This document shows positions 8,128 to 38,351 of a stretch of 64,000 bases of DNA, one piece after another. Each line of letters starts with the position of its first letter. The stretch's first letter is position 1. The position numbers and the translations under genes were made by a program. The notes under the pieces are model-generated. The model was not told the DNA's origin, searched no databases, and saw only the letters and a list, made by a program, of their open reading frames with translations. The stretch covers positions 1 through 64,000 of the forward strand of contig CALURL010000003.1 of the NCBI GenBank assembly GCA_944323155.1, read 5' to 3'. Source of the DNA: Candidatus Gastranaerophilales bacterium. GTDB taxonomy: Bacteria > Cyanobacteriota > Vampirovibrionia > Gastranaerophilales > Gastranaerophilaceae.

Positions 8128-9684
8128 ACATAAATCATCTTTATCATCAACTGTTGCAGCAACCGGCGCCGGAGTTAACCAATCACGGTTTACAAGTTTG
8201 CCCAATTGATGTTTTATACAATAATCTTTTAAGTCTTTCTTAACTTCAGGAGCCAGAATGTACATCGCAATAATGTTTGGTACTGACATCGCAATCATCA
8301 TTGCATCTGTAATATTAATTACTGAAGTTACGTTCAAAACAGAACCGATAATTATAAAGCCGCAATAAATTAACTGAAATGCAAGACTTCTTTTCTTGCC
8401 TTCACCAAACAAGAAGTTCCAGGATTTTTGTCCGTAATATGCCCAGCTTATGATTGTAGATAAAGCATATAAAAGAACAATACCTGCAAGCAGAGTCGGG
8501 AAGAAAGGCATTACAGAAGATATAGCATCTGATGTCATTTCAATACCAGAAGTGTGTCCGGCGTGAGTTTTGTAAACCCCGGTAATTACAATTGCAAAAG
8601 CTGTTAATGTACACATAAATCCTGTTAAAAACGGATCAAGCAATGCAACAAAACCTTGTGATAAAGGTTCTTCTGTTTTAACAGTAGCATATACAATAGG
8701 CGCAGACCCTGTACCTGCTTCATTTGACTGAACAGAACGTCTCAAGCCCATAATCATTGCAACAAACATTCCGCCATAAATAGATTCCGGACAAAATGCT
8801 TCTTTTACAATAACCCACGCAGCATGCGGGATTAATTTGAAATTACAAACAATTACAGCTAAAGCTGAGAAAAGGTATACAAATATTTTTAATGGAACAA
8901 TTTTTTCAGTAACTTTAACAATATTTTTAATACCGCCAATAACAATCAAGCCGACAACAATAGCCATACCGAGCCCTACAACCCAGTGAAGATTATGCAT
9001 AAAGCCGTTTTCACCACCGCAAACGTTAACAAACTGGTTTGCAGCCTGATTTATTTGAATCATATTTCCGCCTGTGATACCACCGCAAATACAAAGAATC
9101 GCAAAAATTACAGACAAAGGCTGTCCTAACCAGCGTAATTTTTTTCTGGTTAAACCATGCGCCATATAATGCATCGGCCCGCCAGAAATAGAACCGTCAA
9201 GGTTAAATCTTCTGTATTTTACAGCCAGAGCAGCCTCAACAAATTTCAAAGACATACCCAGAATTGATCCGACAATAATCCAAAAAGCCGCTCCAGGGCC
9301 GCCCATAGAAATTGCAATCGCAACACCGGCAATACTTCCTAAACCGATTGTTCCGGAAAGTGCTGTCATAAGCGCCTGAAATGATGAAACTTCTCCAGAG
9401 CCATCGCCGTCTTTTTTAGGTTTTACAAGCAAATCAATTGCATGCTTAAATCCCCATACAGCAATTCCTCTTAAATAAAACGTGAAGAACAAACCCGCTA
9501 ATAAAATCCAGAAGATAATGATAGGAACATCTGTTCCGAAAATATGTACCGGGTGAAAAATTATAGCCGCAACAGCGTCCGATACAGGAGCGATGTTCTT
9601 ATCCATAAAAGCGTCAATACTAAATGCTTGAGCCTGCTGGATGTTAATAATAAGTGTCAAAAGTACAATCAAAAATTTGTTCAT
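8113..9684 (-). CDS. sodium:amino acid (alanine/glycine) symporter, AGCS family
   Basis: Imports alanine or glycine with sodium. The product has about eleven hydrophobic spans and the AGCS signature GLRRSVQSNEAGTGSAP near residue 315, plus GGPGAAFWI near 130 and GGPMHYM near 165. I choose ATG 9684 (MNKFLIVLLTLIINIQQAQA) because AGGAAAG lies 8 bases upstream and the N-terminus then reads as a signal-like segment; an upstream start at 9723 would add 13 unlikely residues. The length (523 residues) fits the longer AGCS members that have an N-terminal extension. Exact substrate is not determined. Confidence 0.93.
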   Translation of the reverse strand: MNKFLIVLLTLIINIQQAQAFSIDAFMDKNIAPVSDAVAAIIFHPVHIFGTDVPIIIFWILLAGLFFTFYLRGIAVWGFKHAIDLLVKPKKDGDGSGEVSSFQALMTALSGTIGLGSIAGVAIAISMGGPGAAFWIIVGSILGMSLKFVEAALAVKYRRFNLDGSISGGPMHYMAHGLTRKKLRWLGQPLSVIFAILCICGGITGGNMIQINQAANQFVNVCGGENGFMHNLHWVVGLGMAIVVGLIVIGGIKNIVKVTEKIVPLKIFVYLFSALAVIVCNFKLIPHAAWVIVKEAFCPESIYGGMFVAMIMGLRRSVQSNEAGTGSAPIVYATVKTEEPLSQGFVALLDPFLTGFMCTLTAFAIVITGVYKTHAGHTSGIEMTSDAISSVMPFFPTLLAGIVLLYALSTIISWAYYGQKSWNFLFGEGKKRSLAFQLIYCGFIIIGSVLNVTSVINITDAMMIAMSVPNIIAMYILAPEVKKDLKDYCIKHQLGKLVNRDWLTPAPVAATVDDKDDLCKAGK

Positions 9685-9790
9685 TAAATTCTTTCCTTTC
9701 GGGTTAATCCTCTGTTGGGGCAAATATCTAAGCCTATAACAAAAATTCTACACACCAACTATTATTTTTTATACTATCAGAAACATGCTT

Positions 9791-10873
9791 TTACGGTGTC
9801 AAATCTTTACAAAATCTTAAAATTTGTTGCAAATATTCTTTACAGCATTTGTCGGAAGTGTAGTTTTGAATAGTCTGAAAACTATTGTAAGATAAGATTT
9901 TCAAACTGTCATCATCCATATTTTTTATATTAAGGAGTATTTTTCTTATTTCATTTGAAATCGGAAAGGTTAAAAAACCGTTTTCACCATTTTTGATAAT
10001 TCCTGCAATACCGTCGTCTTTTGTACAGACTGTAATACACCCCTGTGACATAGCTTCTAAATACACCATTCCAAAGGTTTCACCGATGCTTGGAAGAATG
10101 AAAACATCACCATCACGCATTTTTTCAAGAACTTTATCATGCGAAAGCCGGCCTGTAAATTTTACATTTTTATCAAGTTTCTCCAAACTTTTTCTTATTT
10201 TTCCATCCCCTATTACTGTCAGCTCAAAACCTTCAAGCCCTTTGCAGGCTTCTATAACTTTGTCAATATTTTTCCTTTTCTTAAAATTCGCACAGGTTAA
10301 AACTTTGATTTTACCACGGTTTTGGCATGGTATACGCTGAATAATTTCGGCTTTATCAATTCCTGACGGTGCCACAAAAGTTTTAGGTTCAAACTCCGGA
10401 AAAAGTTTTATTAATTTTTCTCTTATTACATACGACCGGCAGGAAATAGCTTTTGCGTTATATAATGCAGTTTTCAGACGTTTTCGAAAATGAATTGAAT
10501 AAAAAGGCTTTGTCAAAACTTCCAGATCAGAATTATGCACACCTGCAACAAAAGGCAATCCTAATTTGTCAGCGAATAAAATTCCTGAAGGCATATGGGC
10601 GACAACTATGTCATAATCAAGCTTACAAGAAAATTTCCGTTTAACATCAAACCAGAAAGGTGTCCAGTAATTTATATTTAAAACATCATTGTACTGTCCT
10701 GTTTTGTAAAACGGTTTTGAGCGTAAAAAAGAATTCAAAATAAAATTAGGTTTAATAACATCTACATCAATACCATCTGTACGCCATCCTTTAACAAAAT
10801 CATAAAGAGTTCTTGGAGTAGTTGTTTCAGTCTCTTTCACCGGATACAAATCTGTTATAAACAAAATTTTCAT
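9791..10873 (-). CDS. glycosyltransferase family 4 (GT-B fold)
   Basis: A 360-residue GT-B enzyme: N-terminal Rossmann half (MKILFITDLYPV, residues 1-170) and a GT4/GT1 C-terminal half with KVLTCANFKKRKNID near 197 and the nucleotide-sugar motif GETFGMVYLEAMSQG near 262-276 (the EX7E pattern). It probably adds a sugar to a cell-surface glycan or glycolipid; acceptor unknown. The start codon ATG 10873 is preceded by TATAAT (10885-10880) at exactly 6 bases with no ribosome site, so the mRNA is predicted leaderless. It stands alone between the symporter and a lineage-specific gene. Confidence 0.92.
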   Translation of the reverse strand: MKILFITDLYPVKETETTTPRTLYDFVKGWRTDGIDVDVIKPNFILNSFLRSKPFYKTGQYNDVLNINYWTPFWFDVKRKFSCKLDYDIVVAHMPSGILFADKLGLPFVAGVHNSDLEVLTKPFYSIHFRKRLKTALYNAKAISCRSYVIREKLIKLFPEFEPKTFVAPSGIDKAEIIQRIPCQNRGKIKVLTCANFKKRKNIDKVIEACKGLEGFELTVIGDGKIRKSLEKLDKNVKFTGRLSHDKVLEKMRDGDVFILPSIGETFGMVYLEAMSQGCITVCTKDDGIAGIIKNGENGFLTFPISNEIRKILLNIKNMDDDSLKILSYNSFQTIQNYTSDKCCKEYLQQILRFCKDLTP

Positions 10874-10890
10874 AAAAAAATTATAACATA

Positions 10891-10916
10891 TAAAAAAGCA
10901 CCCGTATAAGGGTGCC
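10891..10916 (-). terminator. intrinsic terminator of the 241-aa gene
   Basis: Minus strand GGCACCC-TTATA-CGGGTGC followed by TTTTTTA; it lies directly before the promoter of the GT4 gene. Confidence 0.8.
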
Positions 10917-10946
10917 AGTTAATAAATGATTCCTTTAAAATAATTA

Positions 10947-11672
10947 TTATGCATTATATCTCTTTGCCATTTCTCTAAACTGAGGGTCTGTCAAAATCTT
11001 CATATAGTATTCATCTGAATTTAGTCTATCTCTTATTGATTTAAACTTCCATGCTTCTTCACTAGATAACTCATTCGCTTTTACTTTTTTTTCAAATTTA
11101 TTTGACACCGGAATATCTTTTAATTTTTCCAGCTTCATTTTTTCTAAAGTTCTATCAGTATTGGTTCGATAAATACCATTAAATGCATCTCTGATTTCTG
11201 CACGTTTTCTTAATAACTCAAGACGTGTCTTAGGCGTATCTTCAACAATACCAAGCATATCATCGATTGCTTTTTGAGTTGGCATAGATTTTGCACAAGA
11301 ACCGCCTGAATAAATTAATTTTACCGGTTCATGTTTAAATGCTGCAAGTGCGTCTGCGGCACGTTTTTTATCAAAATATCCTGTTGCATCTTTAACTTGG
11401 CCTCTTGTAACACCGGTAATTTCCTCAATCTTTTGAAGTGTTGGTACACTTTCATGCGTAACCTGTGATGTTCTTGAGAATGCATCTTTTGCTTCCTGCA
11501 TTCTTAAAATTCTTCCCGGGGTATTTGTTTCAATTTTTGACCAAATACTACTTTGCGCCGGAATTTCAACCTGTCTTGCAGCACTTTGTACATTACCTGA
11601 ACGTAATACATTTGCAGCCTTTGTGTGTGATAAATAAGCTGCGGCTTTTGTAAAAATTCTTCCAATTCCCAT
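10947..11672 (-). CDS. hypothetical 241-aa helical protein
   Basis: I do not recognise this protein. It begins MGIGRIFTKAAAYLSHTKAA, is mostly charged helix, has no clear membrane span, and contains one GGSCAKS segment near residue 128. ATG 11672 is preceded by AGGAAAGGAC-like sequence. It has its own terminator. It may be a lineage-specific structural or scaffold protein like the two membrane-anchored proteins at 15-17 kb, but no direct similarity to them is obvious. Confidence 0.75.
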   Translation of the reverse strand: MGIGRIFTKAAAYLSHTKAANVLRSGNVQSAARQVEIPAQSSIWSKIETNTPGRILRMQEAKDAFSRTSQVTHESVPTLQKIEEITGVTRGQVKDATGYFDKKRAADALAAFKHEPVKLIYSGGSCAKSMPTQKAIDDMLGIVEDTPKTRLELLRKRAEIRDAFNGIYRTNTDRTLEKMKLEKLKDIPVSNKFEKKVKANELSSEEAWKFKSIRDRLNSDEYYMKILTDPQFREMAKRYNA

Positions 11673-11769
11673 TTTTTGTCCTTTCCTGCTCTTTTGAGCT
11701 TTTAATTATTTTCCCTTACTCCTTCTAAAAAAACATTCTGGCAAAATAATTGCTACACGGGCATCACAT

Positions 11770-11789
11770 CCTATCCTATCCTATCCTAT
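11770..11789. repeat. (CCTAT)4 microsatellite
   Basis: Four exact copies of a 5-base unit in the gap between divergent genes (11673-11940), about 100 bases upstream of the GH57 promoter. A 5-base unit does not affect a reading frame here, but could change promoter spacing or factor binding if it varies. Confidence 0.85.
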
Positions 11790-11886
11790 GAGGCATTATA
11801 TTTGGATCTTAGCTATTTTAAAATTCGAGTTTACATTTTGTTACAATTTATGTACCACTTCACAATTAAGTTAAAATTTAATGTGA

Positions 11887-11914
11887 TTTACATTTGCAAA
11901 TTCAATGGTATAAT
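11887..11914 (+). promoter_or_regulatory. promoter of the GH57 gene
   Basis: TTTACA (11887-11892), 16 bases, extended -10 TGG-TATAAT (11909-11914), 27 bases upstream of the start codon. Confidence 0.7.
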
Positions 11915-11940
11915 AAATTTAGAGTAGCAGGTATTTTTTT

Positions 11941-14187
11941 ATGATGAGCCAAACAAAAAAGTTATCCATAGCATTCTATTGGCATATGCACCAGCCTGTA
12001 TATCAGCTTTCGCCAAATGGTGATTATTTAATGCCATGGACAAGATTACACGCTGTTAAAGATTACCTTGATATGGTAACTATTCTCGATAAACATCCTA
12101 AAATTAAACTGAATTTTAACCTTGTGCCTATTCTGCTTGATGAATTAATTGATTATGGAGAAAGAGGGCTGCATGATATTCATTCAAGGCTTTCTATTAT
12201 GGATATAAAGGATTTGAATGATGATGATAAAGAATTTATTATAAATAACTTTTTTGATGCAAATTATCAGTCAATGATTCTGCCACATCCAGAATACAAC
12301 AGGCTTTATCAAAAATATCAATCAAGCCAGGATGATGATGTTAATATGTTTTCAGATCAAGAATATTCTGATCTTCTTGCCTTGTTTAACCTTGTATGGT
12401 TCGACCCTACACACAAACAGCATTATCCGGAATTAAGAAAACTTTTAAAAAAAGAAAAAAATTATACTCTTGATGACAGAAAAAAAATTATAGAAATTCA
12501 ACGCGATATTATAAGAAAAATTATCCCAACTTACAGAAAATACCTTAATGAAGGACGTATTGAAATAACTACAAGTCCTTATTATCATCCAATATTACCG
12601 ATTCTGCTTGACATAAAAAGTATTAAAAAAGGACCCTCTGATGATTTGCCGTCAAATTTAAAAATGGATTTGGACGCGAAAATGCAAACAGAATTGGCAT
12701 TGCAGCGTATTGATATGTTATTTGGCAAACGTCCTAAAGGGATTTGGCCATCCGAACACTGCGTAAGCTCGAAAACCCTCAATATGCTCAGCGAACTCGG
12801 AGTTAAATGGACAATTTCTGATGAGGGAATTCTTTCTAACTCCATTAATTGCGAATTCGTCAGAGATTTTAAGGGATATCTTGAAGATCCTTACCACCTT
12901 TTAAAATCATACAAATACACAACAAAAACTCCGGAAAATTCAAGCATAAAAATAATTTTCAGAAGTGCTATGCTTCCAAACTTAATCAGTTTTGAATACC
13001 CGAACCATGACCCGGTTGCGGCGGCGAATGATTTATACGATAGATTTAAGGTTATTCAGAGCAAGCTCCTATCATCCCCTGACGAAAATCATCTTGTGAC
13101 AATTGCTATGGACGGTGAAAACTGTTGGGAAAATTACAGCGCTGACGGAGAAACTTTTTTAACTACACTTTACAACCTGATTGAAGAAGATGCTTCTTTG
13201 GAAACAGTTTTGATAAGCGATTATCTTGAAAAGGATACCCCAAAACCTTTAAACAAAATTTCATCAGGTTCCTGGATTAACAGGAATTTTAAACTATGGA
13301 TTAATGAGCCGCTCAAAAACCTTGCCTGGAATTATTTAAAACAGGTAAGAGATGATTTTTGCAAATATGTAAAAGCAAATCCGCTAAATCCAAATATAGA
13401 ACTTGCAAGACGGGAACTTTTTATTTGCGAAGGCAGTGACTGGTTCTGGTGGTATGGTGAGCCAAATGATTCCGGACGCGATAATATTTTTGATTATATT
13501 TTCAGAGAACATTTAAAAAACATTTATATATATTTAGGGCTAGAAATTCCGCAATATTTGGATATTCCGTTAATCTCGGCAATTACAAAACCTTCCAGAT
13601 ACCCAAAAGGCGAATTCACCCCGCACATTGACGGAAAAGAAGATGATGATGAAGACTGGATTAACGCCGGATGTATTTATATTCCGGACGGGCCGGTTCT
13701 TAAAGAAAATAAATTCTATGACAAAATTTGTTTTGGCTACGACAAGGATAATTTGTATTTAAGATTTTATATAAATGAATTCCTGAAAGATTCACCTGTA
13801 CTGAAAAAACAGGTTAATCAAATGTATATTTATATGAGAAACCAGAACAGAAAACAAGCTTTGTCGCCAATTAGGGTTATACAAAAACAAGAAGCAATCC
13901 TGCCAATTTCAAAAGAAAAATTCCACAACGAAATACAAATTTCAGTACACGATAATGAAATTAATCTTGTAAGACTTGTTCAGGCAATACCTAACAATCT
14001 ATGGACAATAAAGTCCTCCAAAACAATTACTGCTGTTTTTGAAAACGTTGTTGATGTAAAAATTCCATTTGAAACAATTGATATACAAGAAGGCGAGACT
14101 CTTGAATTTCTATTTGTTAATGCAAACTACGGTATGGTTGATTTTTACCTGCCGAATGAAATGCTTTTAACTATCAAGCGGCTGTGA
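11941..14187 (+). CDS. glycoside hydrolase family 57 (alpha-amylase/amylopullulanase-like)
   Basis: GH57 enzymes cleave or rearrange alpha-glucans. The 748-residue protein has the family N-terminus FYWHMHQP (about residue 12-18), the conserved region 3 with likely nucleophile Glu in GIWPSEHC near 270, and DGENCWENY near 390, the pullulanase-type motif. A FICEGSDWFWWYGEP segment near 495 begins the C-terminal part that is common in this subgroup. No signal peptide is seen, so it probably acts on intracellular glycogen. The start may be ATG 11941 or 11944. No other glycogen gene lies nearby. Confidence 0.9.
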   Translation: MMSQTKKLSIAFYWHMHQPVYQLSPNGDYLMPWTRLHAVKDYLDMVTILDKHPKIKLNFNLVPILLDELIDYGERGLHDIHSRLSIMDIKDLNDDDKEFIINNFFDANYQSMILPHPEYNRLYQKYQSSQDDDVNMFSDQEYSDLLALFNLVWFDPTHKQHYPELRKLLKKEKNYTLDDRKKIIEIQRDIIRKIIPTYRKYLNEGRIEITTSPYYHPILPILLDIKSIKKGPSDDLPSNLKMDLDAKMQTELALQRIDMLFGKRPKGIWPSEHCVSSKTLNMLSELGVKWTISDEGILSNSINCEFVRDFKGYLEDPYHLLKSYKYTTKTPENSSIKIIFRSAMLPNLISFEYPNHDPVAAANDLYDRFKVIQSKLLSSPDENHLVTIAMDGENCWENYSADGETFLTTLYNLIEEDASLETVLISDYLEKDTPKPLNKISSGSWINRNFKLWINEPLKNLAWNYLKQVRDDFCKYVKANPLNPNIELARRELFICEGSDWFWWYGEPNDSGRDNIFDYIFREHLKNIYIYLGLEIPQYLDIPLISAITKPSRYPKGEFTPHIDGKEDDDEDWINAGCIYIPDGPVLKENKFYDKICFGYDKDNLYLRFYINEFLKDSPVLKKQVNQMYIYMRNQNRKQALSPIRVIQKQEAILPISKEKFHNEIQISVHDNEINLVRLVQAIPNNLWTIKSSKTITAVFENVVDVKIPFETIDIQEGETLEFLFVNANYGMVDFYLPNEMLLTIKRL

Positions 14188-14254
14188 ATACATGTAACAA
14201 ATTCTTAAAAATACCGGCGAAATCATAAAGTTTTTTAATTGTTCAACGTTATTC

Positions 14255-14455
14255 ATGTTAAAGAAACCAAAGGTAAGAAAAATGACATTTGACTATGATG
14301 CAAATAAACCAAAAGGACTTCCAAAACTTCCGGACAATTACTGGAAAAACCAGGAAAAGCCGGAGGAAAATTCTGATGTAAACACAATTTTTGACAAAAA
14401 CCTGAAAGCATCATTGGAAGATGTTTCTGTTTTCCGCAAAAATAAAAAAGAATAA
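14255..14455 (+). CDS. hypothetical 66-aa basic protein
   Basis: A small, charged, probably disordered protein (MLKKPKVRKMTFDYDANKPK...) downstream of the GH57 gene on the same strand. It has no recognised domain and a weak ribosome site. It ends 6 bases before the convergent TPR gene. Confidence 0.55.
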   Translation: MLKKPKVRKMTFDYDANKPKGLPKLPDNYWKNQEKPEENSDVNTIFDKNLKASLEDVSVFRKNKKE

Positions 14456-14461
14456 GGCAGT

Positions 14462-14953
14462 TTATTTCAAGTATTTTTGTTGAATTAATTTTTTCAATGC
14501 CTTTGAATATACTCCCTGCGGTTCAATTTCCAGAGCTTTATCAAGAGATTGTATTGCGCCTTTATAATCTTTCAATTTTTTCTTTATAACAGCCGCATAA
14601 TAATGAGCATCAACAAATTTTGGACTTAATTCAGCAGCTTTGTTCAAATCCTCAAGTGCTTTTTTCAAATCATCGTCATCCAAATTCTCCCCTGCAAGAA
14701 CTGCCTGCGCACGATTGTAATATGCATCAGTCATCGAAGCGTCTTTTTCTATTGCCATTGTATAATTTTCAAAAGCATCTTCAAGTTGATTTTGCATATG
14801 AAAAATTATTCCCTTTGAAAAATATGCAAGAGCATAATTAGGATTTAATTCAACAGCCTTGTCCAATGCCTCTAATGCTTCATCATAATTGCCGGAATTA
14901 GTCTCTGAAATTCCTAAGTTTGTATAATATTTGTAATCCTTTTCTTCTGACAT
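14462..14953 (-). CDS. TPR-repeat protein
   Basis: The 163 residues are nearly all tetratricopeptide repeats, about four units, each with the 34-residue pattern (NLGISETNSGNYDEALEALD, AYFSKGIIFHMQNQLEDAFE, AHYYAAVIKKKLKDYKGAIQ). It lacks a signal peptide, so it is cytoplasmic and should mediate protein-protein contacts; partner unknown. ATG 14953 has GGAGAG upstream. Confidence 0.88.
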   Translation of the reverse strand: MSEEKDYKYYTNLGISETNSGNYDEALEALDKAVELNPNYALAYFSKGIIFHMQNQLEDAFENYTMAIEKDASMTDAYYNRAQAVLAGENLDDDDLKKALEDLNKAAELSPKFVDAHYYAAVIKKKLKDYKGAIQSLDKALEIEPQGVYSKALKKLIQQKYLK

Positions 14954-17092: not shown

Positions 17093-17620
17093 CTATTCAA
17101 AATCTAAATCTTTAATATTTTTTATATCTTCTGCACTTCCCCAATCATTTTCATATAGCCCTTGTTTTACAAATTTGTGAAAAGATGAATATTGCCAGTC
17201 TTTTACATTTTTTACAAGTCCGTGTTTTACAGGATTGTAGTGAATATAATCAATTTGATTATTTAATTCTTCTTCTGATGTAATTGTGTGTTCAAAAAAT
17301 CTGCGCTGGAATATACCTTTTTCACCTTTGTTAACATATCCGTAAGTTGGGGTTTCTACCCCAACATTATTATTAGAAAAATAATATTTTATTGATGTGA
17401 TAATTTTAGGATATTCTTCAATATTTTCAGGATTTAATATTAAATGAATATGTTCAGGTAAAACACAAATTGCAACAATTTCAAATTTAAAAAACTGTTT
17501 TGCGTTTTTAAACGAATGTCTTAAAAGTGCTATGTTATTGACAAATATACTTTTTCTATTGTAAGCAATAATAATTAAATGTACATAACTGTTTGGAATA
17601 AAAACTCGTCTGTAGTTCAT
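17093..17620 (-). CDS. REP-associated tyrosine transposase (RAYT, IS200-like TnpA)
   Basis: A 175-residue Y1-type HUH enzyme: the metal-binding PEHIHLIL (HUH motif, near residue 56-63) and the catalytic Tyr in IDYIHYNPVKHGLV near residue 140, with KGIFQRRFFEHTI between. RAYT proteins nick and join REP hairpins and usually exist as one domesticated copy per genome. Here REP hairpins flank the gene on both sides, and one lies inside the frame, encoding VGVETPTYG in the variable loop between YYF and KGEKG. The start ATG 17620 has TAGGAAA upstream. The frame is intact. Confidence 0.88.
   Translation of the reverse strand: MNYRRVFIPNSYVHLIIIAYNRKSIFVNNIALLRHSFKNAKQFFKFEIVAICVLPEHIHLILNPENIEEYPKIITSIKYYFSNNNVGVETPTYGYVNKGEKGIFQRRFFEHTITSEEELNNQIDYIHYNPVKHGLVKNVKDWQYSSFHKFVKQGLYENDWGSAEDIKNIKDLDFE
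17346..17365. repeat. REP hairpin inside the RAYT coding frame
   Basis: GTTGGGGT-TTCT-ACCCCAAC, the exact reverse complement of the flanking copies, with the shared flank GTAAGTTGGGG. It is translated as VGVETPTYG without breaking the frame (20 bases plus flanks inserted or accommodated in a variable loop). Confidence 0.85.
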
Positions 17621-23313: not shown

Positions 23314-23314
23314 T

Positions 23315-23340
23315 AAAAGAGGCATTCACCTGCCTCTTTT
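23315..23340 (+). terminator. bidirectional terminator between convergent genes
   Basis: Perfect 10-bp stem AAAAGAGGCA (23315-23324) and TGCCTCTTTT (23331-23340). Works for the esterase (plus) and for the 146-aa gene and giant gene (minus). Confidence 0.8.
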
Positions 23341-23344
23341 AAAC

Positions 23345-23785
23345 TTATAAAGCTCTTAAATCTTTTGAAAGAGATTTAACCTTAGCGAGAACTTTTTTGT
23401 TAAGTTCAGCTGATGATAAAGTTTTCATAATCTCTTCTTTTGTTCCTCTTTTAATAATACTTGCGGCTTCTTCGCCATAAGGTCCGACAACAACAGCCTC
23501 AAGCCAGCGTGCTGTATTATAATCCGGTGTTGTTTCTTTGAGTTCCATTGGCAATGAACGAACACGAAGTATTACTTCTCTGGCAAAATAACTGTTATCT
23601 TTATTATCAAAACGTTCAGTAACAGACGCAAAACTTCCGTATTCAGGAACTTCTCTTTCTGCACGCATTGCCAGTTTTTCTAAAATTTTATCTGTTGAAA
23701 TATCAAAAGAAAACTGTTCTTTTTTCATTTTGTTAGTTCCTTCAATTTTAAGATTGTTATTTTTCATCCGGTTAATTTTATCCAT
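23345..23785 (-). CDS. hypothetical 146-aa protein downstream of the giant gene
   Basis: I do not recognise this soluble protein. It starts 55 bases after the stop of the giant RelA/SpoT-HD gene on the same strand and shares its terminator, so the two are probably one operon. GAGG lies 5 bases before ATG 23785. Segments such as DISTDKILEKLAMRAEREVPEYGSF suggest a small alpha/beta fold. If the giant protein is a toxin-like effector, this gene is the natural candidate for an immunity or chaperone partner; that is speculation from position only. Confidence 0.7.
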   Translation of the reverse strand: MDKINRMKNNNLKIEGTNKMKKEQFSFDISTDKILEKLAMRAEREVPEYGSFASVTERFDNKDNSYFAREVILRVRSLPMELKETTPDYNTARWLEAVVVGPYGEEAASIIKRGTKEEIMKTLSSAELNKKVLAKVKSLSKDLRAL

Positions 23786-23840: not shown

Positions 23841-26800
23841 TTACAAATTACCTGAAGGTTTCATAAGAATTATCGGGAGATTGTATTTTTGTGCGAATTC
23901 TAAAAACTCTTTCGGACAATTCTCAAGTTTTTCTACTTTTGCGACAAGTCCTTTTATGCGCGGATTCAACGATACAATTTCGCTATGAAAACTGCCATTA
24001 AATAATTCATCGCGAGACTTATCAAGACTAGATACAAGATCCTCAGCTTTTATAACTTTATTATTAATTCTTATATCTTTAATTTGATTTGTATATTTTT
24101 TAGACAATAAATATTTTGTAAGCTGAGCATATTCATCGTCGCTAATTTCAATGCCTTTTTCTTTCAAATCAGCTATCAGGTTATCTTTAACATAACTTCT
24201 TTTTTTACCGTCGGAAAATAGCAATTCTTTAAAATCACCTATATCTTTTTGTGTTCCTGAACCGAGATTTTCATAATAAGCTTTTGAAATATTAGCCTGA
24301 TCCGTATCAAATATAAATCCGAATTTTCTACCAACGTATGTTCTATTGTTAGACGTACTGATAAGTGATGTTGACCAGCCGCTTTGATTTAGGGGATTGT
24401 TTAGCAATACATAAACAGATTCCATCCTGCTAAACTCTGGGTCAGTCATATGTACAGTAAATCTTGCATTATCTCTTGTTACACCAGGTGCAAAACCATA
24501 TTTTGACAAGTCTTCTTCATTATCTAATTGAGATAAATTCAATACTTTTAATTGTGTTTCTTTATTGCCGATTTTTACAGATTGTGTCGGGAAAAGTTTA
24601 CCGTTTTGAACAAACTGTGTATCAAGAACAATGTTTGCTTTTGAGTATAAATTTTTCATTTCATCTTCAACTGCTTTAAATTTATTATCCATAAATGTAT
24701 CGAATTCAGCAGCATTTGATGTTTTTGAAAGGGATAGATGAAAATCATCATTTACACTTGCAAAATCTGCTTTTGCCAAAATTTCATAAATTTTAAAATC
24801 TTCAGGGCGGCGGCATCTAACAGCAACATCTTGAGCAGTTGCTTTTCCTGTATTATATGCTTCAAACCAATGATGATTGTCTATAATATCAATTATTCTG
24901 TGTTTAACTCTATCCGGAAATTCAAATTTATCCAGAACAGACATTGCATAGTCTGCACTTAAAGCTGCATGACCTTTATCTATAATACCGCCTCTTTTGC
25001 CAGTATCATGCAGCAAAGCAGCGAATTTAACAATTGTTTTATCCACATCTGATAATGTATTGTATAATGGGTCATTCATAGCAGTTTGCAAAACTTTCAT
25101 GGTATGAATATCAACAGAATATGCATGGGTTCCATGTTGTTTTTTACCAATAATTGAAGTAAATTCAGGCAAACCTTTCACAAGTCCGTCTAATACAGCC
25201 TTAGCGAATTTGTCATCAAGCATAACTTCATTATTCAAAGTGAATTTATTAATTTCTTGTAAAATCTTTTCTGCGGCTATTTTTGACTTTTTAGAAACAT
25301 TTTGATTTTCAAATGGTTTGTTGTTCAAAAGTCCATCATAACCTGCTTCACCTTTTTCAAGGCCAAAGTGGTTTAATAATAGGTTACGCTCTGATTCCGG
25401 CACACTCTCAATAATCTCATTAATAGCTTTATTAAAATCATCTCTTGAATATTTTAAAGGAATGCCTTCTTTACCGAATTGTGTAAAGTCATATTCCTTC
25501 AGAACTTTTTCTGTATTACTGTTATTATTTGCAAGAATTTCAGTGACAAATTTTAATTGTTGAGCTTTTGGAGTATCTACATTCGGACGTCTTTCTCCAA
25601 GAGAAACAGCCAGTTTCGATTGAATATCATTTATGTTTATATTTGATTTAATCAAGTTATTTTTTAAATCTTCGTCAAATTGCATCAGCATATTTAAGCA
25701 TCCAATCCTTTTATCCAGAGCTTCTTTAGAAATCATATCAGGTTTGTCGGCAATTTCTGCTAAAACATTTATATTTCCCGCTTCTTGAGGATTTTCTATT
25801 GCTTTTGCAAAATATGAAAAGGCTGCATCATTTGATTTCGCAAGTAAAGATATTATATTTTCATTATTAGATAATTTCAAGATGTTACGTTTTTTGATAT
25901 TGGCTATAGCTTTATCATCCAATTTGGATATTTTGACTACAGCTTCCATAGGAAAACTATAATCAGAAATCTGGCTTGCTAATTCCTTGTCTTGAAAAAT
26001 TGTTTTGTCAAATCTTTCAAATTCGTCATCAGTCAAAGATGAAAGGAGTTTTATATCTTTTACATCTAGAGAATTCTGCAGGTCTTTAATATTATCCTCA
26101 AATCTTACGTGCAAATTATTCCAGTCAGATTCCGGCATATTAGTCAATTCTATTACTTCACTAGACCTAAGTAGTCCGTTTTTAGCAATAATTTCTTTGG
26201 CTCTTTTAAGCTCCTCACCTTCAAGATTTGTCAGCATCCTAATATCATAACTGCGGAATCTTACAGCATCTAAATCATTTTTCATTAATACAAGTTCTTT
26301 TGCAAAATCAAATTTGTCATCAGGGTATCTTGCAATATCTACAAGTACAGAACCGCTTAGCTGCTTTGATTTTCGGGCTTCAATATATATCAAATCATTA
26401 ATCCTGTCATACTCAGCATCAGACAATCCTGCAAGCTGCATAATATCAGTGTCCATCAAATTTTGACCGGAGATATTACCTAATACTCTGTTTTTATTCC
26501 TTGTAAGATTTCTTTTCTCAACATTTGCCCATTGCTCATCAGACATGCCTATTAGTCCATCTATATAAGTTCCGTACAATCTTGCTTTAACTAAATTCCT
26601 ATCGGAAACAGTTTTGAAATCTTCATCAGACATTTGTGCAAGTTCAACTATTCCACGAGAATTTTCGTATGAAAAATCAGGATACTCCATTAGTTTACGT
26701 TCAGCTATTTTATCAATGTCTATATCACTTAACGAAAATAAATGAAAATTTTCATTTATTTCATTTAAGTTCATATCAGGTAATTTGTTAATCCAATTCA

Positions 26801-29800
26801 GTACAAAATCTGTTTGTTTTTGTGATTTTATATATTGAACATAGATTGTTAAATCTAGTGCTGTGTCTGTATCTAAATTATCTTTACTTTTTAATATCTT
26901 CGTAAGAAAATCAGCCTGTGCATCATTTGTAAGATTGTTGTATCCTGCAAGATTAAAGAGTAAATTGCCTAATTTAGGCTTATAATTTTCTGCAACAAAT
27001 TTGTACTGAATATCATTGTAAAGTTTATCTGAATTTAAATAAATATCATCAACAGTCATGCCAGAATCTAATAATTTATTCAACATTTTATCAAAAGCTT
27101 GAGATTTGTTTTTGCTTGCCAGATTTATTGCAGTGTTAATATCATCTGTCTTGCTAAATATTTTAAGCGCAGTTTCAACACTGTAATCATCTTTTACATT
27201 CTCAAAAAGTCTTTGTTCCAAATACGGATATTTTATTTTTTTATCTATTACTGTATCGATTAATTTAATTTGAGAATCCGTCTCAACAAGCTCAAGTCTT
27301 CTTGTTAATGCATAAAAATCATTCCCGAGTTTGTCGGAATTTTCAGCCATAACTTTCAATTTTGATTTAAGATATTCTGCTTTTGCAGGAGTGTCTGCAA
27401 GCGACAGTGCTTCTGCTTCGGCAAAAGATGGTTTTCTGTTCAAAATTTTCTCATAATCAGGATCTTTATAAACATCCATTACTTTATCAAAGCTTTTTCG
27501 CCCTTCGTTTAAAGCAATTTCTGCCGTGTTATAGCCTCTTATAATATTTTCAACATCTTCTATATCAATTTTAGGATTAACTTCTGCAAATCTGAAAATT
27601 TTATTCAAAACTTCAGTATCATAGTCAGCATTTGGGTTTACCTGACCATATTTGTCAAGCTTAGTATTCTTTAGATAAAACTTCCTGTCTTCATCAGACA
27701 AAGAGGATAACTTGTCACTATGCAGAAATTCATATACAACATCGCCTTTCTCAGATGTTGAAGATTTATTGACAAGTTTATCGTACATATTAAGAGCTTC
27801 TTCTTGAGAAATTTTACCATTTTTCAGTTCATCTGAGACTTTATGCAAGTTTTCAAGATTTTCTGCGCTTAACCGTTTATCAAATTTCAAAGGCAAAATA
27901 GGGGCGCTGCTTTCAAAACCAAGTTCAAGTTTTCTCAGATGTTCATAATGCGCTGTCAGGTAATTATTGTATTCATCAAAATCATCAGCACTTAATCCTT
28001 TTACAATATTTTCAATTGGAGAATAAAGTTCTTTTAGGATTTCTCTTCCGCCTGTAACATCTTTATTCTCTCTAATATCGTATGGAACATGTTCACATTC
28101 GGCAAATTCATTTACCTTTGAGCCGCGTAACTGCCATTCATAAGTAGCCCCGTCTTTTGTTGTAAAGTTCATCTGTAATGCAGTATAACCTGAGGCTCTG
28201 ACTTTTGTCGTTTTAGAGCCTACATCCAAATCAATATCATGTTTTGCTGCCAAATCTCTTAGATATGCAACTTGTTTATCGGAAAAATATGGAATTCCGT
28301 CTTTACCCATATAATTTGATATTTTTATAGCATTAATCGGGGATGTTCCATTTGCTTGCTGCAAAATGATATTTTCTACAGATTTTACATATTGTTCTGA
28401 CTGCATTTCTGCTGCAAGTCTAATGGCTTTTTGCGGATCGGTTTTATAAAGCTCAACAAGTTCTGGATACTGTTTGTAATCAAAATCTTCCATTCTTGTT
28501 CTTGTCCCAACCATATCTCTTACACTGTCAACAGCATCTTCAAATGAGGCAGGATATTTTGGATCAAGCATTGCATTTTTAATCTTGTCATAAATACTTT
28601 GTTCACTTTTTGCTCTATGAGTCATGGTTGATTCGTTACCAAGACCCAATTTATGCATTGTTGAGACTATTGAAGATTCAATATTAACTGCCTTGTCATG
28701 AATTTGTTTTGCAGTATTTCGAACCTGCTGTTCCGCTTCTATAGGCAAATGAGCTTCAACAGATTTATTCCTACTAACTTTAACCTGTTCTTGAGATGAA
28801 GTTTTATTCAAATCAATTGCTGAAATATCCTCAGACAAATTAGATTTTTTCACCCGTAATTTCCCTGCAGAAATGTCATCCATGGTTTTTAAAATATTTA
28901 CAGCGTCGTCTTTTGTGACACCGTATTCTTTGAATGCATCCTGAATATATTTTACTTTTGTTTCTGTGTTCAAATGTTTAAACTGTTTTTGCAAAACACC
29001 GCCTGACAGCGCAAAACCAACAGACATTAACCAATCCTGCTTTGTAACATCTCCGTTATCCATTAACTGATTTACAAAATATGTGCTTGAAATATCAAGC
29101 GCTGTTTCACTTGAAACCTGTAATGCTTTTGCTAAATTATCAATTTTTTTGAAACTCTGTACAATGTCTTTTGGAAATTTAACAGGGTTAGCCTTAACCA
29201 TTGCAGAAATCTCATCGGCTGATTTTCCGGCTTTTTTCAGTGTACTTACCAATGCTTTTGTTTTGTACATTGCAGCGCCTTGTTCTGCAAGTTTGCTTAC
29301 ACCTGCACCAACTGTCATGTATACTGAATTTTCAAGAACTTCTTTACCCCAGGCTTCCCATTCTTGTGAATTCATACCGTTTTCTGAGGTTAATTGTTCT
29401 AAAAGCTCTGTTGGACGTAATGTTAGATTTGCCATTACAAAAGGAGATGCTGCCTGTTGAACTTTTTGCATTGTCTGTGCAGCTTTTACGGCTTTTTTGG
29501 ATTTATCAACCATTCCTAAAGTTTTCACTGCTTTGCCGACTGTTGCAGAATTCTTCAATGCAACTGAACCTTTTAAAAGCCAGCCGCTTGTTGCCGCAGC
29601 CCCGCCAGGTACCAGCATTAATGCCATTGAGGCAATATCTAATCCGGCTTCAATATTTGCAACTCCCTGTTGTTGAGCATTGACATAATTATCAGCAAGA
29701 ATTTTTAAATCTTTTTTGCCAAAGGCTTTTGAAAAACTTGTTTCATATTCCTTTTGATATTTTTCGAGACTTTGCTGAGTTAAACGTGACATATCTTCTG

Positions 29801-30818
29801 CTGTTGCATTTTCATTATATTTAATTCCCAATGCAGTCGCTAAAGATTTATCCAAACGCATTCCAACCTCTTGGGCAATTACCTTAAAAGGAGCGGTCGC
29901 CGGAACATCTTCACCTTTTGAAGTTGTACGCATTAATACAGGCTCTCCGTTTGAATTTGTTTCAAAACGTAAGTTTTGACCAAATTTGCTGATATAAGGA
30001 TTATCTTTATTTTTTGTTTCAATATCTTTTAAAACAGCATTCATGTCTTCAAGTTTTGTAACACCAGACATTTTGAATGCTTTAACTATAGCCGCAGAAG
30101 ACTGTTCAGGATTAAATTGAGACATTGGATTATCAGCAATAGCTTTAAACTCATCTTTTATATCGGAAATCATATTAACAACTGTTTTTACACGCGCGAA
30201 TTGTTGTGATTTTTCCTTACAGTCATTTATTGCCTGCTCATTAAACTCAACTCCTCTGCGTTTTTTGAACATTTCTTCAAAGGATGTTGAAACAGTTTCG
30301 CCCGTAAATAAATTGTCATAAACTGCTTCCCCGCGGGATGCACGTTCTAAAAGTTTTATATCTTCCTGTGTAGATTTAATCTCATTTTTTACAGTTGATT
30401 TTGCTAAATCTTTATTGAAAGTTTCCTGCCATAGATTAACAGTGGATGATAAAACTCCTGCTTCTTTGTCTCTTTCGGTTACAATGTCATTTGCCTGTCC
30501 TGTTACAGTTTTTAGAAAATCAATTGCACTTGTCTGAACTTCTGTCGGTTCAATTTTTTCAGAAGATTTAGGTGTTTTTTCTATAGAAATCCCTTTTTGT
30601 TTGTCTAAATTTAAACCAATAGAAAATACCGGAGAATTCTCTAACATTTTTTTATTTGATGCTGAAAGGCTTTCAAAACCAGGATAAATTTTTCCGGTCT
30701 TTTTCATTTCTTTTTGCATTATAGATGCAACAGCTTCGTCAGACAAAACAAAACCAAGGTTATTCTTAACCCTATACTCGTTTATAGCTTTTAATTGTTG
30801 TAAACTATATTCTGACAT
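23841..30818 (-). CDS. giant protein (2,325 aa) with RelA/SpoT-type synthetase and HD domains
   Basis: Residues about 725-915 match the alarmone synthetase fold: HRAKSEQSIYDKI (735-746; compare R-x-K-x3-S-I-x2-K of RelA and small alarmone synthetases), VRDMVGTR with the metal Asp 768, SGYTALQ (876-882), and YEWQLRG...EFAECEH (893-910) with Glu 894 in place of the EIQIRT Glu. Residues about 1890-2035 are an HD domain: His 1905, His-Asp 1937-1938 in FAALLHDTGKRGG, and a later NHHWFEA. Between them (about 1355-1655) lie degenerate repeats of about 40 residues with SDEDFxxVxxRNL-like units. The N-terminal 700 residues include hydrophobic helices near 390-430. The C-terminal 250 residues are unassigned. 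Canonical Rel/SpoT has HD first, then synthetase, so this order is reversed. I choose ATG 30818 (MSEYSLQQLKAI) with AAAGG upstream, not TTG 30851. Confidence 0.85.
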   Translation of the reverse strand: MSEYSLQQLKAINEYRVKNNLGFVLSDEAVASIMQKEMKKTGKIYPGFESLSASNKKMLENSPVFSIGLNLDKQKGISIEKTPKSSEKIEPTEVQTSAIDFLKTVTGQANDIVTERDKEAGVLSSTVNLWQETFNKDLAKSTVKNEIKSTQEDIKLLERASRGEAVYDNLFTGETVSTSFEEMFKKRRGVEFNEQAINDCKEKSQQFARVKTVVNMISDIKDEFKAIADNPMSQFNPEQSSAAIVKAFKMSGVTKLEDMNAVLKDIETKNKDNPYISKFGQNLRFETNSNGEPVLMRTTSKGEDVPATAPFKVIAQEVGMRLDKSLATALGIKYNENATAEDMSRLTQQSLEKYQKEYETSFSKAFGKKDLKILADNYVNAQQQGVANIEAGLDIASMALMLVPGGAAATSGWLLKGSVALKNSATVGKAVKTLGMVDKSKKAVKAAQTMQKVQQAASPFVMANLTLRPTELLEQLTSENGMNSQEWEAWGKEVLENSVYMTVGAGVSKLAEQGAAMYKTKALVSTLKKAGKSADEISAMVKANPVKFPKDIVQSFKKIDNLAKALQVSSETALDISSTYFVNQLMDNGDVTKQDWLMSVGFALSGGVLQKQFKHLNTETKVKYIQDAFKEYGVTKDDAVNILKTMDDISAGKLRVKKSNLSEDISAIDLNKTSSQEQVKVSRNKSVEAHLPIEAEQQVRNTAKQIHDKAVNIESSIVSTMHKLGLGNESTMTHRAKSEQSIYDKIKNAMLDPKYPASFEDAVDSVRDMVGTRTRMEDFDYKQYPELVELYKTDPQKAIRLAAEMQSEQYVKSVENIILQQANGTSPINAIKISNYMGKDGIPYFSDKQVAYLRDLAAKHDIDLDVGSKTTKVRASGYTALQMNFTTKDGATYEWQLRGSKVNEFAECEHVPYDIRENKDVTGGREILKELYSPIENIVKGLSADDFDEYNNYLTAHYEHLRKLELGFESSAPILPLKFDKRLSAENLENLHKVSDELKNGKISQEEALNMYDKLVNKSSTSEKGDVVYEFLHSDKLSSLSDEDRKFYLKNTKLDKYGQVNPNADYDTEVLNKIFRFAEVNPKIDIEDVENIIRGYNTAEIALNEGRKSFDKVMDVYKDPDYEKILNRKPSFAEAEALSLADTPAKAEYLKSKLKVMAENSDKLGNDFYALTRRLELVETDSQIKLIDTVIDKKIKYPYLEQRLFENVKDDYSVETALKIFSKTDDINTAINLASKNKSQAFDKMLNKLLDSGMTVDDIYLNSDKLYNDIQYKFVAENYKPKLGNLLFNLAGYNNLTNDAQADFLTKILKSKDNLDTDTALDLTIYVQYIKSQKQTDFVLNWINKLPDMNLNEINENFHLFSLSDIDIDKIAERKLMEYPDFSYENSRGIVELAQMSDEDFKTVSDRNLVKARLYGTYIDGLIGMSDEQWANVEKRNLTRNKNRVLGNISGQNLMDTDIMQLAGLSDAEYDRINDLIYIEARKSKQLSGSVLVDIARYPDDKFDFAKELVLMKNDLDAVRFRSYDIRMLTNLEGEELKRAKEIIAKNGLLRSSEVIELTNMPESDWNNLHVRFEDNIKDLQNSLDVKDIKLLSSLTDDEFERFDKTIFQDKELASQISDYSFPMEAVVKISKLDDKAIANIKKRNILKLSNNENIISLLAKSNDAAFSYFAKAIENPQEAGNINVLAEIADKPDMISKEALDKRIGCLNMLMQFDEDLKNNLIKSNININDIQSKLAVSLGERRPNVDTPKAQQLKFVTEILANNNSNTEKVLKEYDFTQFGKEGIPLKYSRDDFNKAINEIIESVPESERNLLLNHFGLEKGEAGYDGLLNNKPFENQNVSKKSKIAAEKILQEINKFTLNNEVMLDDKFAKAVLDGLVKGLPEFTSIIGKKQHGTHAYSVDIHTMKVLQTAMNDPLYNTLSDVDKTIVKFAALLHDTGKRGGIIDKGHAALSADYAMSVLDKFEFPDRVKHRIIDIIDNHHWFEAYNTGKATAQDVAVRCRRPEDFKIYEILAKADFASVNDDFHLSLSKTSNAAEFDTFMDNKFKAVEDEMKNLYSKANIVLDTQFVQNGKLFPTQSVKIGNKETQLKVLNLSQLDNEEDLSKYGFAPGVTRDNARFTVHMTDPEFSRMESVYVLLNNPLNQSGWSTSLISTSNNRTYVGRKFGFIFDTDQANISKAYYENLGSGTQKDIGDFKELLFSDGKKRSYVKDNLIADLKEKGIEISDDEYAQLTKYLLSKKYTNQIKDIRINNKVIKAEDLVSSLDKSRDELFNGSFHSEIVSLNPRIKGLVAKVEKLENCPKEFLEFAQKYNLPIILMKPSGNL

Positions 30819-30981
30819 TAACACGTAACCTTTCAGAGATATTATCGGCAAAGAGCATTTATTTCTTTAAACTTTGTAAAAATATATTACGAAGTTACGA
30901 CAAGAGCAATTTGAGATAAAAGTTTTTTTGTGTTTTCATGGTAGTAGAAAAATATACAGTTACCACCTAGAGAGAAAATTA

Positions 30982-37011: not shown

Positions 37012-37677
37012 CTAATTTATTCTAATCTGATTTCTGCCGTTTTCTTTTGCCTTATAAAGCAATTTATCCGCAGCGTCAAAAAGTTCACACGGATTAGAAA
37101 TATCTTCGCTCAATTCACTTACGCCTACACTTATTGTAACAGATATTTTTTCCCCGTTAAATTTAAAAATTGATTCCTCAAACGCTTTTCTCAGTCTCTC
37201 CATTGGAATAAAAGCATTTTCCTTTGACGTTTCTGGCAAAATTACTGCAAATTCTTCACCGCCGTAGCGGAAATACAAATCTGTTATTCTGAAATTATTC
37301 GAAATTAAATACGCTGCTTCTTTCAAAATATAATCACCGCAGCTATGCCCGTAAGTATCGTTTACTTTTTTAAAAAAGTCTATATCTATTATTGCAAAAC
37401 TGAGTTTGCTATTATATCTTTTCGCTCTGGAAAATTCACGTTCAAAGGAACTTTCAAAATGCCTTCTGTTATAAAGTCCGGTCAGTGCATCAGTTAATGA
37501 AATATGCTTTGTCTGTTTATACATAAAATTAATCTTTTTTATAACATCGGTTTTGTTAGCGTCAGGAATATCAAAACTTTCGATAATATTTTGAATATTC
37601 TGTTGAATTTCATCCAGAACATCCGCCGGAATTTCAAAACCGTCACTCACTTTGTTGTTAAAAATTTCATCTTGCAT
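37012..37677 (-). CDS. diguanylate cyclase (GGDEF domain)
   Basis: Makes cyclic di-GMP from two GTP. The C-terminal 165 residues are a complete GGDEF domain: DALTGLYNRRHF near 60, DIDFFKKVNDTYGHSCGD near 100 and RYGGEEFAVILPE near 140. RITD lies five residues before GGEEF, which fits the RxxD product-inhibition I-site. The N-terminal 55 residues are helical with no sensor domain. I start at ATG 37677 with AAAGGTGG upstream. It is divergent from the HD-domain gene at 37764. Confidence 0.93.
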   Translation of the reverse strand: MQDEIFNNKVSDGFEIPADVLDEIQQNIQNIIESFDIPDANKTDVIKKINFMYKQTKHISLTDALTGLYNRRHFESSFEREFSRAKRYNSKLSFAIIDIDFFKKVNDTYGHSCGDYILKEAAYLISNNFRITDLYFRYGGEEFAVILPETSKENAFIPMERLRKAFEESIFKFNGEKISVTISVGVSELSEDISNPCELFDAADKLLYKAKENGRNQIRIN

Positions 37678-37763
37678 TTTTGCTATAACCACCTTTTATA
37701 TATAAATTAATTATACCAGAAAATTTTGCAACTAGTTTGTTTTTTTGTTAATCTGTTTACGGA

Positions 37764-38351
37764 ATGGCACAGGACGCAAAAACAATCTTAATACAAAGTA
37801 AACAAGATATTACTCATGCTAATGAAGTAAGACGTTTTTCTATGATGATATTTGATGAGGTTTGCGAAAAACTTCATTCAATGCCCGACAGACACAGGCA
37901 ATATCTTGAAGCAGCAAGCCTTTTGCATGACATTGGATATTCCATAGAAGCAAATAATCATAACAAACATAGTATGCATATAATTATTGAGAATGGTATT
38001 GAAGGTTTTAACAGCCATGAATGCCAGATAATAGGCTGTATATGCAGATATCACAGAGGGAGTCTTCCTAAAAAACAAGAACATGAAGTTTATAAAGATT
38101 TAGAAAAACAAGAACGCAAAACAGTTAAACGTCTTGGAGGAATTCTAAAATTATCTGACGGGCTGGGAAGAGGACATATTAACTTTATTAAAAAAGTTAA
38201 TATTAACTATGACACCGAAAATAATATTGTGGAATTTCTTTTAACTCCAGCAACCCCAAATTTTCATCCTGATATAAGCGGAGCCGCACGCAAACGTGAT
38301 TTGTTTGAAATAGGTTTTAAATGCCAGAGCGTCTTAAAGTTTTGCAAATAA
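37764..38351 (+). CDS. HD-domain phosphohydrolase
   Basis: A 195-residue protein with HD-superfamily metal residues: His in ITHANEVRRFS near 17, His-Asp in ASLLHDIGYS near 53, His in KHSMHIII near 73 and CRYHRGSLP near 97, Asp in LKLSDGLGRG near 137. The order and spacing resemble the HD domain found at the C-terminus of Ppx/GppA exopolyphosphatases, so a polyphosphate or (p)ppGpp-related nucleotide substrate is possible. It is divergent from the diguanylate cyclase gene. No strong ribosome site is visible. Confidence 0.85.
   Translation: MAQDAKTILIQSKQDITHANEVRRFSMMIFDEVCEKLHSMPDRHRQYLEAASLLHDIGYSIEANNHNKHSMHIIIENGIEGFNSHECQIIGCICRYHRGSLPKKQEHEVYKDLEKQERKTVKRLGGILKLSDGLGRGHINFIKKVNINYDTENNIVEFLLTPATPNFHPDISGAARKRDLFEIGFKCQSVLKFCK

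What the first reader, a model, noticed from the sequence alone, without database searches (positions are those of the whole stretch)
23841..30818. Giant protein with RelA/SpoT-type synthetase and HD domain in reversed order
A 2,325-residue protein has R-x-K-x3-SI-x2-K, the metal Asp, GYTALQ and YEWQLR...ECEH blocks of alarmone synthetases (residues 725-915), then repeats, then an HD domain (1890-2035). Classical Rel has HD before synthetase and is a third of this size. The key catalytic residues look intact, so it may make and/or destroy an alarmone or related nucleotide in a scaffold or effector setting. I know of no described system with this layout.
Basis: partly seen in the sequence, partly recalled or inferred. 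Interest (0 to 1): 0.87.

Follow-up and report, generated by a model that had tools for sequence, protein, structure and literature searches.

The report
Giant effector-like protein with alarmone-synthetase module
A gut bacterium related to cyanobacteria makes a giant mosaic protein that carries an enzyme module of the kind that makes bacterial stress nucleotides, and a small neighbouring gene follows this module from one giant protein to the next just as an antidote follows its toxin.

Summary
In detail: a 2,325-residue ORF on the minus strand (23841-30818) carries a real RelA/SpoT-type synthetase module and a real HD module. The reading as a "reversed" Rel does not hold. In Candidatus Gastranaerophilales these modules shuffle independently between 320- and 4,355-residue proteins. 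The synthetase module usually sits near the C-terminus; seven catalytic residues are invariant in 95/95 distinct copies; its closest solved structure is an exported alarmone synthetase. The HD module resembles CCA-adding-enzyme HD domains, not the Rel hydrolase, and occurs without the synthetase and in either order. Its family (no consistent Pfam match, no PDB match) lies directly downstream of 91 of 103 synthetase-module ORFs and in none of 17 loci with only HD/C-terminal modules, including two whose N-terminal 660 residues are 58-60% identical to ours. In an independent scan of 59 genomes, 20 of 21 family members sit beside a synthetase module. Best reading: a polymorphic-toxin-like effector with a pyrophosphokinase toxin module and a new candidate immunity family. 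Substrate, toxicity and delivery route are untested. New variant of a known kind.

The parts
23841..30818 (-). giant ORF, 2,325 aa (ORF open to TTG at 30851)
30597..30818 (-). N-terminal helical segment plus G-[IVL]-[ST]-[IVL]-E-[KR] motif, shared in pattern by otherwise different giant carriers; candidate export signal (inferred)
   Evidence: only one copy in own genome
28842..30818 (-). N-terminal carrier module, 58-60% identical to L032/L033 proteins that lack the synthetase module
27768..28748 (-). RelA/SpoT-type synthetase module (P0001 residues 702-1028)
28080..28616 (-). catalytic block of the synthetase module, RxKxxxSI to EHVPYD
25593..27686 (-). alpha-helical region with degenerate about 34-residue repeats
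24666..25574 (-). HD metal-dependent phosphohydrolase-like module
23859..24623 (-). C-terminal alpha/beta module with invariant His, S-x-S, SG and NE; no known family (ART-like arrangement suspected, unproven)
23345..23785 (-). 146-aa partner gene, candidate immunity protein, 55 nt downstream, own Shine-Dalgarno-like sequence
23314..23341 (-). intrinsic-terminator-like hairpin closing the two-gene unit

Best explanation
This is a polymorphic-toxin-like effector of Candidatus Gastranaerophilales. A giant mosaic carrier protein holds a RelA/SpoT-type pyrophosphokinase module that acts as a toxin, and the small gene 55 nt downstream encodes its cognate immunity protein. Shown: fold and invariant active site of the synthetase module, shuffling of modules, tight linkage of the small gene to that module and not to the carrier or the HD module, and an operon-like layout. 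Inferred: the module moves pyrophosphate from ATP to a 3' hydroxyl of a purine nucleotide (giving (p)ppApp or (p)ppGpp) or of tRNA and so stops growth of the cell it enters; the partner binds and blocks the enzyme in the producer. The HD and C-terminal modules are accessory catalytic or effector modules. Export, perhaps through the flagellum-derived type III apparatus kept by these often aflagellate bacteria, is conjecture.
For: Synthetase identity: Pfam on relatives over cut-off, 19/23 members, PDB profile hits to GTP pyrophosphokinases, AF2 pLDDT 92 with Foldseek top hit 8vx3 (exported alarmone synthetase SaEAS), then RelP and CapRel, seven catalytic residues invariant in 95/95 modules. Effector layout: the module ends within 60 residues of the C-terminus in 55 of 85 distinct pairs, on many unrelated carriers. 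Immunity: partner family downstream, same strand, of 91 of 103 synthetase ORFs (median gap 43 nt) and absent from all 17 loci with only HD/C-terminal modules, including L032/L033 with a closely similar N-terminus; an unbiased scan of 59 genomes places 20 of 21 partners beside a synthetase module; a single copy in the own genome, here; module and partner co-diverge, Mantel r 0.82, 0 of 2000 permutations; downstream ORFs of HD-only carriers show no shared family. A terminator-like hairpin follows the partner gene. A normal 754-aa Rel exists elsewhere in the genome, so housekeeping alarmone control is covered.
Against: No toxicity, neutralisation or enzymatic data. In this protein the synthetase module is internal, followed by about 1,300 residues, unlike a classical C-terminal toxin tip. 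No known export domain was recognised and no T4SS VirB4 in the genome. The partner has no homology to known immunity families, so it could be a chaperone or regulator. Co-divergence can also arise from shared vertical descent. Twelve synthetase ORFs lack a recognisable partner; some lie at contig ends, others have only a divergent ORF downstream.
Confidence: 0.7

Rival explanations
1. Intracellular toxin-antitoxin or anti-phage unit: the giant protein stays in the cell, its long arms sense infection or stress, and the downstream protein is an antitoxin holding the toxSAS-like module inactive.
For: toxSAS toxins with cognate antitoxins exist (PMC11782079); CapRel, which fuses sensor and toxin, is among the Foldseek hits; no known secretion domain.
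Against: Module shuffling across many unrelated giant carriers and the usual C-terminal position are typical of effectors; no consistent PADLOC match; chromosomal setting among housekeeping genes, no phage or plasmid relatives of the module.
Confidence: 0.17
2. The downstream protein is a secretion or folding chaperone for the synthetase module rather than an inhibitor of it.
For: Small proteins encoded beside large effectors are often chaperones (general knowledge); the genome has a flagellum-type III export apparatus.
Against: Type III chaperones bind effector N-termini (general knowledge); here carriers with a similar N-terminus but no synthetase module lack the gene, while unrelated N-termini with the module have it. 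The partner in the window is basic (pI 9.3), unlike typical acidic type III chaperones.
Confidence: 0.13
3. A bifunctional alarmone enzyme: the synthetase makes and the HD module destroys the same nucleotide within one scaffold.
For: Both modules keep their metal and substrate residues and co-occur in 12 of 103 synthetase ORFs, several of them full length (L102, L104, L116, L129).
Against: HD is not of Rel type and is closest to CCA-adding-enzyme HD; it is absent from most synthetase carriers, occurs without the synthetase, and is degenerate in L032/L033.
Confidence: 0.06
4. Catalytically dead scaffold: synthetase and HD folds retained only for nucleotide sensing.
For: GYxxxH of Rel/SAS is GYTALQ here, so one active-site position differs from guanosine-type enzymes.
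Against: Invariance of seven catalytic residues in 95 of 95 modules and a linked partner family are hard to explain without activity; Apk2 toxins also depart from SxH at this site and are active (PMC12226406).
Confidence: 0.05

Closest known systems
Exported alarmone synthetases (EAS; SaEAS, VpEAS, AaEAS; PMC12691689)
   Same: SYNTH fold (top Foldseek hit 8vx3), presumed export setting, outside Rel regulation
   Different: no Sec, WXG/LXG, MuF, PAAR/Rhs or DUF4157 match found here; giant multi-module carrier; SaEAS has no immunity gene whereas this module has a linked partner
toxSAS polymorphic toxins Tas1/Apk1 (T6SS) and Apk2 (MuF) with immunity proteins (PMC12226406, PMC11782079)
   Same: RelA/SpoT-type toxin domain, small adjacent partner gene, swapping of carriers
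   Different: partner family shows no similarity to Tis1 or pZFD antitoxins in the PDB search; carriers unrelated; module internal in this protein; substrate unknown
XopAD/SKWP giant type III effectors of plant pathogens with RelA/SpoT domains (PMC3482391, PMC12691689)
   Same: over 2,000 residues, RelA/SpoT-like domain; very weak NCBIfam matches of 4 of 23 module sequences
   Different: no family-level match; adds HD and a third module; has a linked candidate immunity gene; different phylum and habitat
Bifunctional Rel/SpoT
   Same: a synthetase and an HD domain in one chain
   Different: HD of another type, order not fixed, no TGS/ACT found, three times the size; the genome has its own normal Rel

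Membership tests
RelA/SpoT-type synthetase (PF04607 superfamily) | catalytic residues RxKxxxS, metal Asp, GY, ExQxR, EH | tested here: met
   invariant or nearly so in 95 distinct modules
RelA/SpoT-type synthetase (PF04607 superfamily) | Pfam score over the curated cut-off | tested here: inconclusive
   window module 23.1 bits against 27; several direct relatives over it
RelA/SpoT-type synthetase (PF04607 superfamily) | synthetase fold | tested here: met
   AF2 pLDDT 92; Foldseek best hits are alarmone synthetases, E 2.8e-4, probability 1.00, TMt 0.56
Bifunctional Rel/SpoT | Rel-type HD hydrolase with HDxxED, N-terminal to synthetase, plus TGS/ACT | tested here: not met
   HD reads HDTGKR, lies C-terminal, best matches CCA-adding-enzyme HD; no TGS/ACT/HD_4 in the Pfam scan
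toxSAS / polymorphic toxin with RelA-type toxin domain | toxin domain swapped between carriers | tested here: met
toxSAS / polymorphic toxin with RelA-type toxin domain | cognate immunity gene directly downstream, tracking the toxin domain | tested here: met
   91/103 ORFs against 0/17 loci; 20/21 in an independent scan. That it confers immunity is not tested
toxSAS / polymorphic toxin with RelA-type toxin domain | recognised trafficking domain | tested here: not met
   no such Pfam or NCBIfam match in the whole protein
toxSAS / polymorphic toxin with RelA-type toxin domain | toxicity and pyrophosphokinase activity | not testable with these tools
   needs expression and enzyme assay
Known toxSAS immunity families (Tis1, pZFD antitoxins) | sequence relation of the partner | tested here: not met
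   no PDB match up to E 10; no Pfam family matched by more than one of 38 members
HD superfamily phosphohydrolase | H...HD...H...HH...D metal ligands and fold | tested here: met
   substrate unknown
ADP-ribosyltransferase-like (C-terminal module) | strand-borne H/R, S-T-S and E, and ART fold | tested here: inconclusive
   invariant H, S-x-S and NE on predicted strands in the right order, but no PDB or Pfam match

The most novel reading that the evidence does not exclude
Gastranaerophilales wage interbacterial (or host-directed) conflict with giant multi-enzyme effectors, here a pyrophosphokinase, an HD phosphohydrolase and a third unknown catalytic module in one chain, exported by a second, flagellum-derived type III apparatus that nearly all members keep even without flagella, and guarded by a new immunity family specific to the pyrophosphokinase module.
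Probability: 0.15. Interest if true: 0.85.

Novelty: new variant of a known kind. Interest (0 to 1): 0.62.

Why it matters
It adds a large, widespread family of probable alarmone-synthetase effectors with a previously undescribed candidate immunity family, in an uncultured order of non-photosynthetic gut relatives of cyanobacteria for which I found no described effector or toxin system. The pair can be tested directly in laboratory E. coli. The substrate of a GYTxxQ-type synthetase (ATP, GTP or tRNA) is open and would extend the rules of toxSAS specificity.

Tried and rejected
Phage or plasmid origin: no relatives of the synthetase module in phages, plasmids or viral contigs, housekeeping neighbours. 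Reversed Rel: rejected by HD type and variable order. An immunity gene for the HD/C-terminal modules: no family shared among downstream ORFs. T4SS export: no VirB4. Correlation of module presence with the type III apparatus: uninformative because FHIPEP is in 57 of 59 genomes. A common N-terminal signal elsewhere in the own genome: the profile finds only this protein. Fold of the C-terminal module by profile search: nothing, and Foldseek of the joint model was dominated by the HD part. Searches of contig collections with the broad alignments A1 and A4 failed for lack of conserved stretches.

Full report
OBSERVATION. The ORF exists on the minus strand at 23841-30851; an ATG at 30818 with an upstream AAAGG gives the 2,325 residues of the finding. 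Residue numbers below are from that ATG. The synthetase blocks (R735-x-K737, D768, GY878TALQ, E894-W-Q896-L-R898, E909-H910) and HD ligands are present. The setting is chromosomal: alaS, dut and a tRNA-Arg on one side, a transporter and, further on, threonine-biosynthesis genes on the other (gene names are my reading of the translations). The 1.79-Mb genome belongs with Candidatus Gastranaerophilales (Melainabacteria), judged by the titles of the records carrying the closest relatives.

THE SYNTHETASE MODULE IS REAL. The whole protein does not hit RelA_SpoT in Pfam, but the module alone does weakly (23.1 bits, cut-off 27), 19 of 23 relatives do, and several are over the cut-off. A profile of 23 modules against the PDB gives GTP pyrophosphokinases as its significant hits, best E 5.6e-07. 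AlphaFold2 gives pLDDT 92.1; Foldseek's best match is 8vx3, the exported alarmone synthetase of Streptomyces albidoflavus, then RelP and CapRel, with FaRel2 and Tas1 lower. TM-scores are moderate (TMt 0.56 at best); the module has a long insert between the metal Asp and GY. Across 95 distinct modules R735, K737, D768, Y878, E894, Q896 and H910 are invariant.

THE HD MODULE IS REAL BUT NOT OF REL TYPE. Pfam HD is over cut-off for the isolated module (24.2 against 22 bits) and hits 16 of 19 members. The model (pLDDT 90.6, pTM 0.89) and the profile point to HD of the CCA-adding/poly(A) polymerase type and, more weakly, Cas3 and cyclic-nucleotide phosphodiesterases. The HDxxED of Rel hydrolases is absent (HDTGKR).

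MODULES SHUFFLE. Blast of the protein against ORFs of relatives shows modules moving independently: an N-terminal carrier (58-60% identical over 660 residues in L032 and L033, which have no synthetase), the synthetase module, the HD module (alone in 350-450-residue proteins of several genomes) and a C-terminal module. The combination of the window (synthetase, then HD and C-terminal module) recurs in L102, L103/L035, L104, L106, L116 and, more distantly, L117, L119, L120 and L129. L149 has the HD/C-terminal part first and the synthetase last. Order therefore carries no message. In 55 of 85 distinct cases with a partner gene the synthetase module ends within 60 residues of the C-terminus, 11 lie at 61-300 residues, and 19 (this protein among them) further inside.

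THE PARTNER GENE. The 146-residue ORF at 23345-23785, 55 nt downstream and with its own AGAGG, belongs to a family with the motif RAEREVPEYGxF. Its members lie directly downstream, on the same strand, of 91 of 103 synthetase-module ORFs (median gap 43 nt in 85 distinct pairs). They are absent from all 17 loci with HD/C-terminal modules but no synthetase, L032 and L033 included. In an independent profile scan of 59 genomes, 20 of 21 partners sit beside a synthetase module; the exception is G015:C2. Module and partner co-diverge (Mantel r 0.82, 0 of 2000 permutations), with the caveat of shared descent. A terminator-like hairpin follows the partner gene, so the two genes look like one unit. The family has no consistent Pfam match and no PDB match, so it is not recognisably related in sequence to Tis1 or to pZFD antitoxins of solved structure. 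Downstream ORFs of HD-only carriers share no family; of the modules examined, only the synthetase behaves like a toxin with an antidote.

MECHANISM. Shown: fold, intact active site, shuffling, linkage. Inferred: pyrophosphate transfer from ATP to a nucleotide or tRNA 3' hydroxyl, toxic to the recipient cell, blocked by the partner in the producer. This is how Tas1/Apk1, Apk2 and the tRNA-targeting toxSAS work (PMC12226406, PMC11782079). The acceptor cannot be read from the sequence: the GYxSxH of guanosine enzymes is GYTxxQ here; Apk2 also departs from SxH there, but swapping its motifs did not change its specificity (PMC12226406).

DELIVERY IS UNKNOWN. No known trafficking domain was recognised; no VirB4; no flagellin. 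The genome does have FlhA-, FliH-, FliF- and FliE-like genes in one cluster. FHIPEP proteins in the order fall by score into a class of about 850-890 bits in part of the genomes and a second class of about 670-740 bits in nearly all of them, the own genome having only the second. That fits reports of partial flagellar gene sets in Gastranaerophilales (PMC4040986). Several giant carriers share a helical N-terminus followed by G-x-[ST]-x-E-[KR]. A type III route is thus possible but not shown.

COMPARISON. RelA/SpoT toxin domains in T7SS polymorphic toxins, MuF prophage toxins and giant XopAD type III effectors were recognised in 2012 (PMC3482391); about 600 exported alarmone synthetases were reported in 2025 (PMC12691689). 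What is new here is the order-wide set of giant carriers in Gastranaerophilales, a partner family of no known kind, and the combination with HD and an unassigned third module. I file it as a new variant of a known kind that works like a toxSAS/EAS effector; its enzymatic activity and toxicity are untested.

Noticed in passing
L183 (own genome C5:55000-74000) 8646-14594; G000:C4:7736-8779: FlhA/FliH/FliF/FliE-like cluster in a genome without flagellin; a second, lower-scoring class of FHIPEP is kept by nearly all of 59 Gastranaerophilales-related genomes, plus a third FHIPEP-fragment type of about 490 aa
   Followed up: partly
23859-24623 and alignment A5: C-terminal module with invariant His, S-x-S, SG and NE on predicted strands, ART-like in order but matching no known family
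   Followed up: partly
30597-30818 and N-termini of L032-L039, L101, L121, L129: Recurring N-terminal helical segment plus G-[IVL]-[ST]-[IVL]-E-[KR] motif in otherwise different giant proteins, possible export tag
   Followed up: partly
L032:8450-10081, L033:3002-4642: Proteins with a closely similar N-terminus to the window protein carry an HD module whose metal ligands are lost
   Followed up: no
L178 630-1367: A related synthetase module in a Massilia mucilaginosa contig, with a different 130-aa ORF 78 nt downstream
   Followed up: no
G016:C31, G035:C3, G041:C4, G046:C3:230006, G014:C74 and others: Separate group of 350-400-residue RelA_SpoT-domain proteins in several relatives, with no partner-family member found beside them
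   Followed up: no
G015:C2:84666-85046: Orphan member of the partner family, not next to a detected synthetase module
   Followed up: no
17093-17620: REP-associated tyrosine-transposase-like ORF (from reading the translation)
   Followed up: no
37012-38351: GGDEF-domain ORF next to a divergently oriented stand-alone HD-domain ORF (from reading the translations)
   Followed up: no
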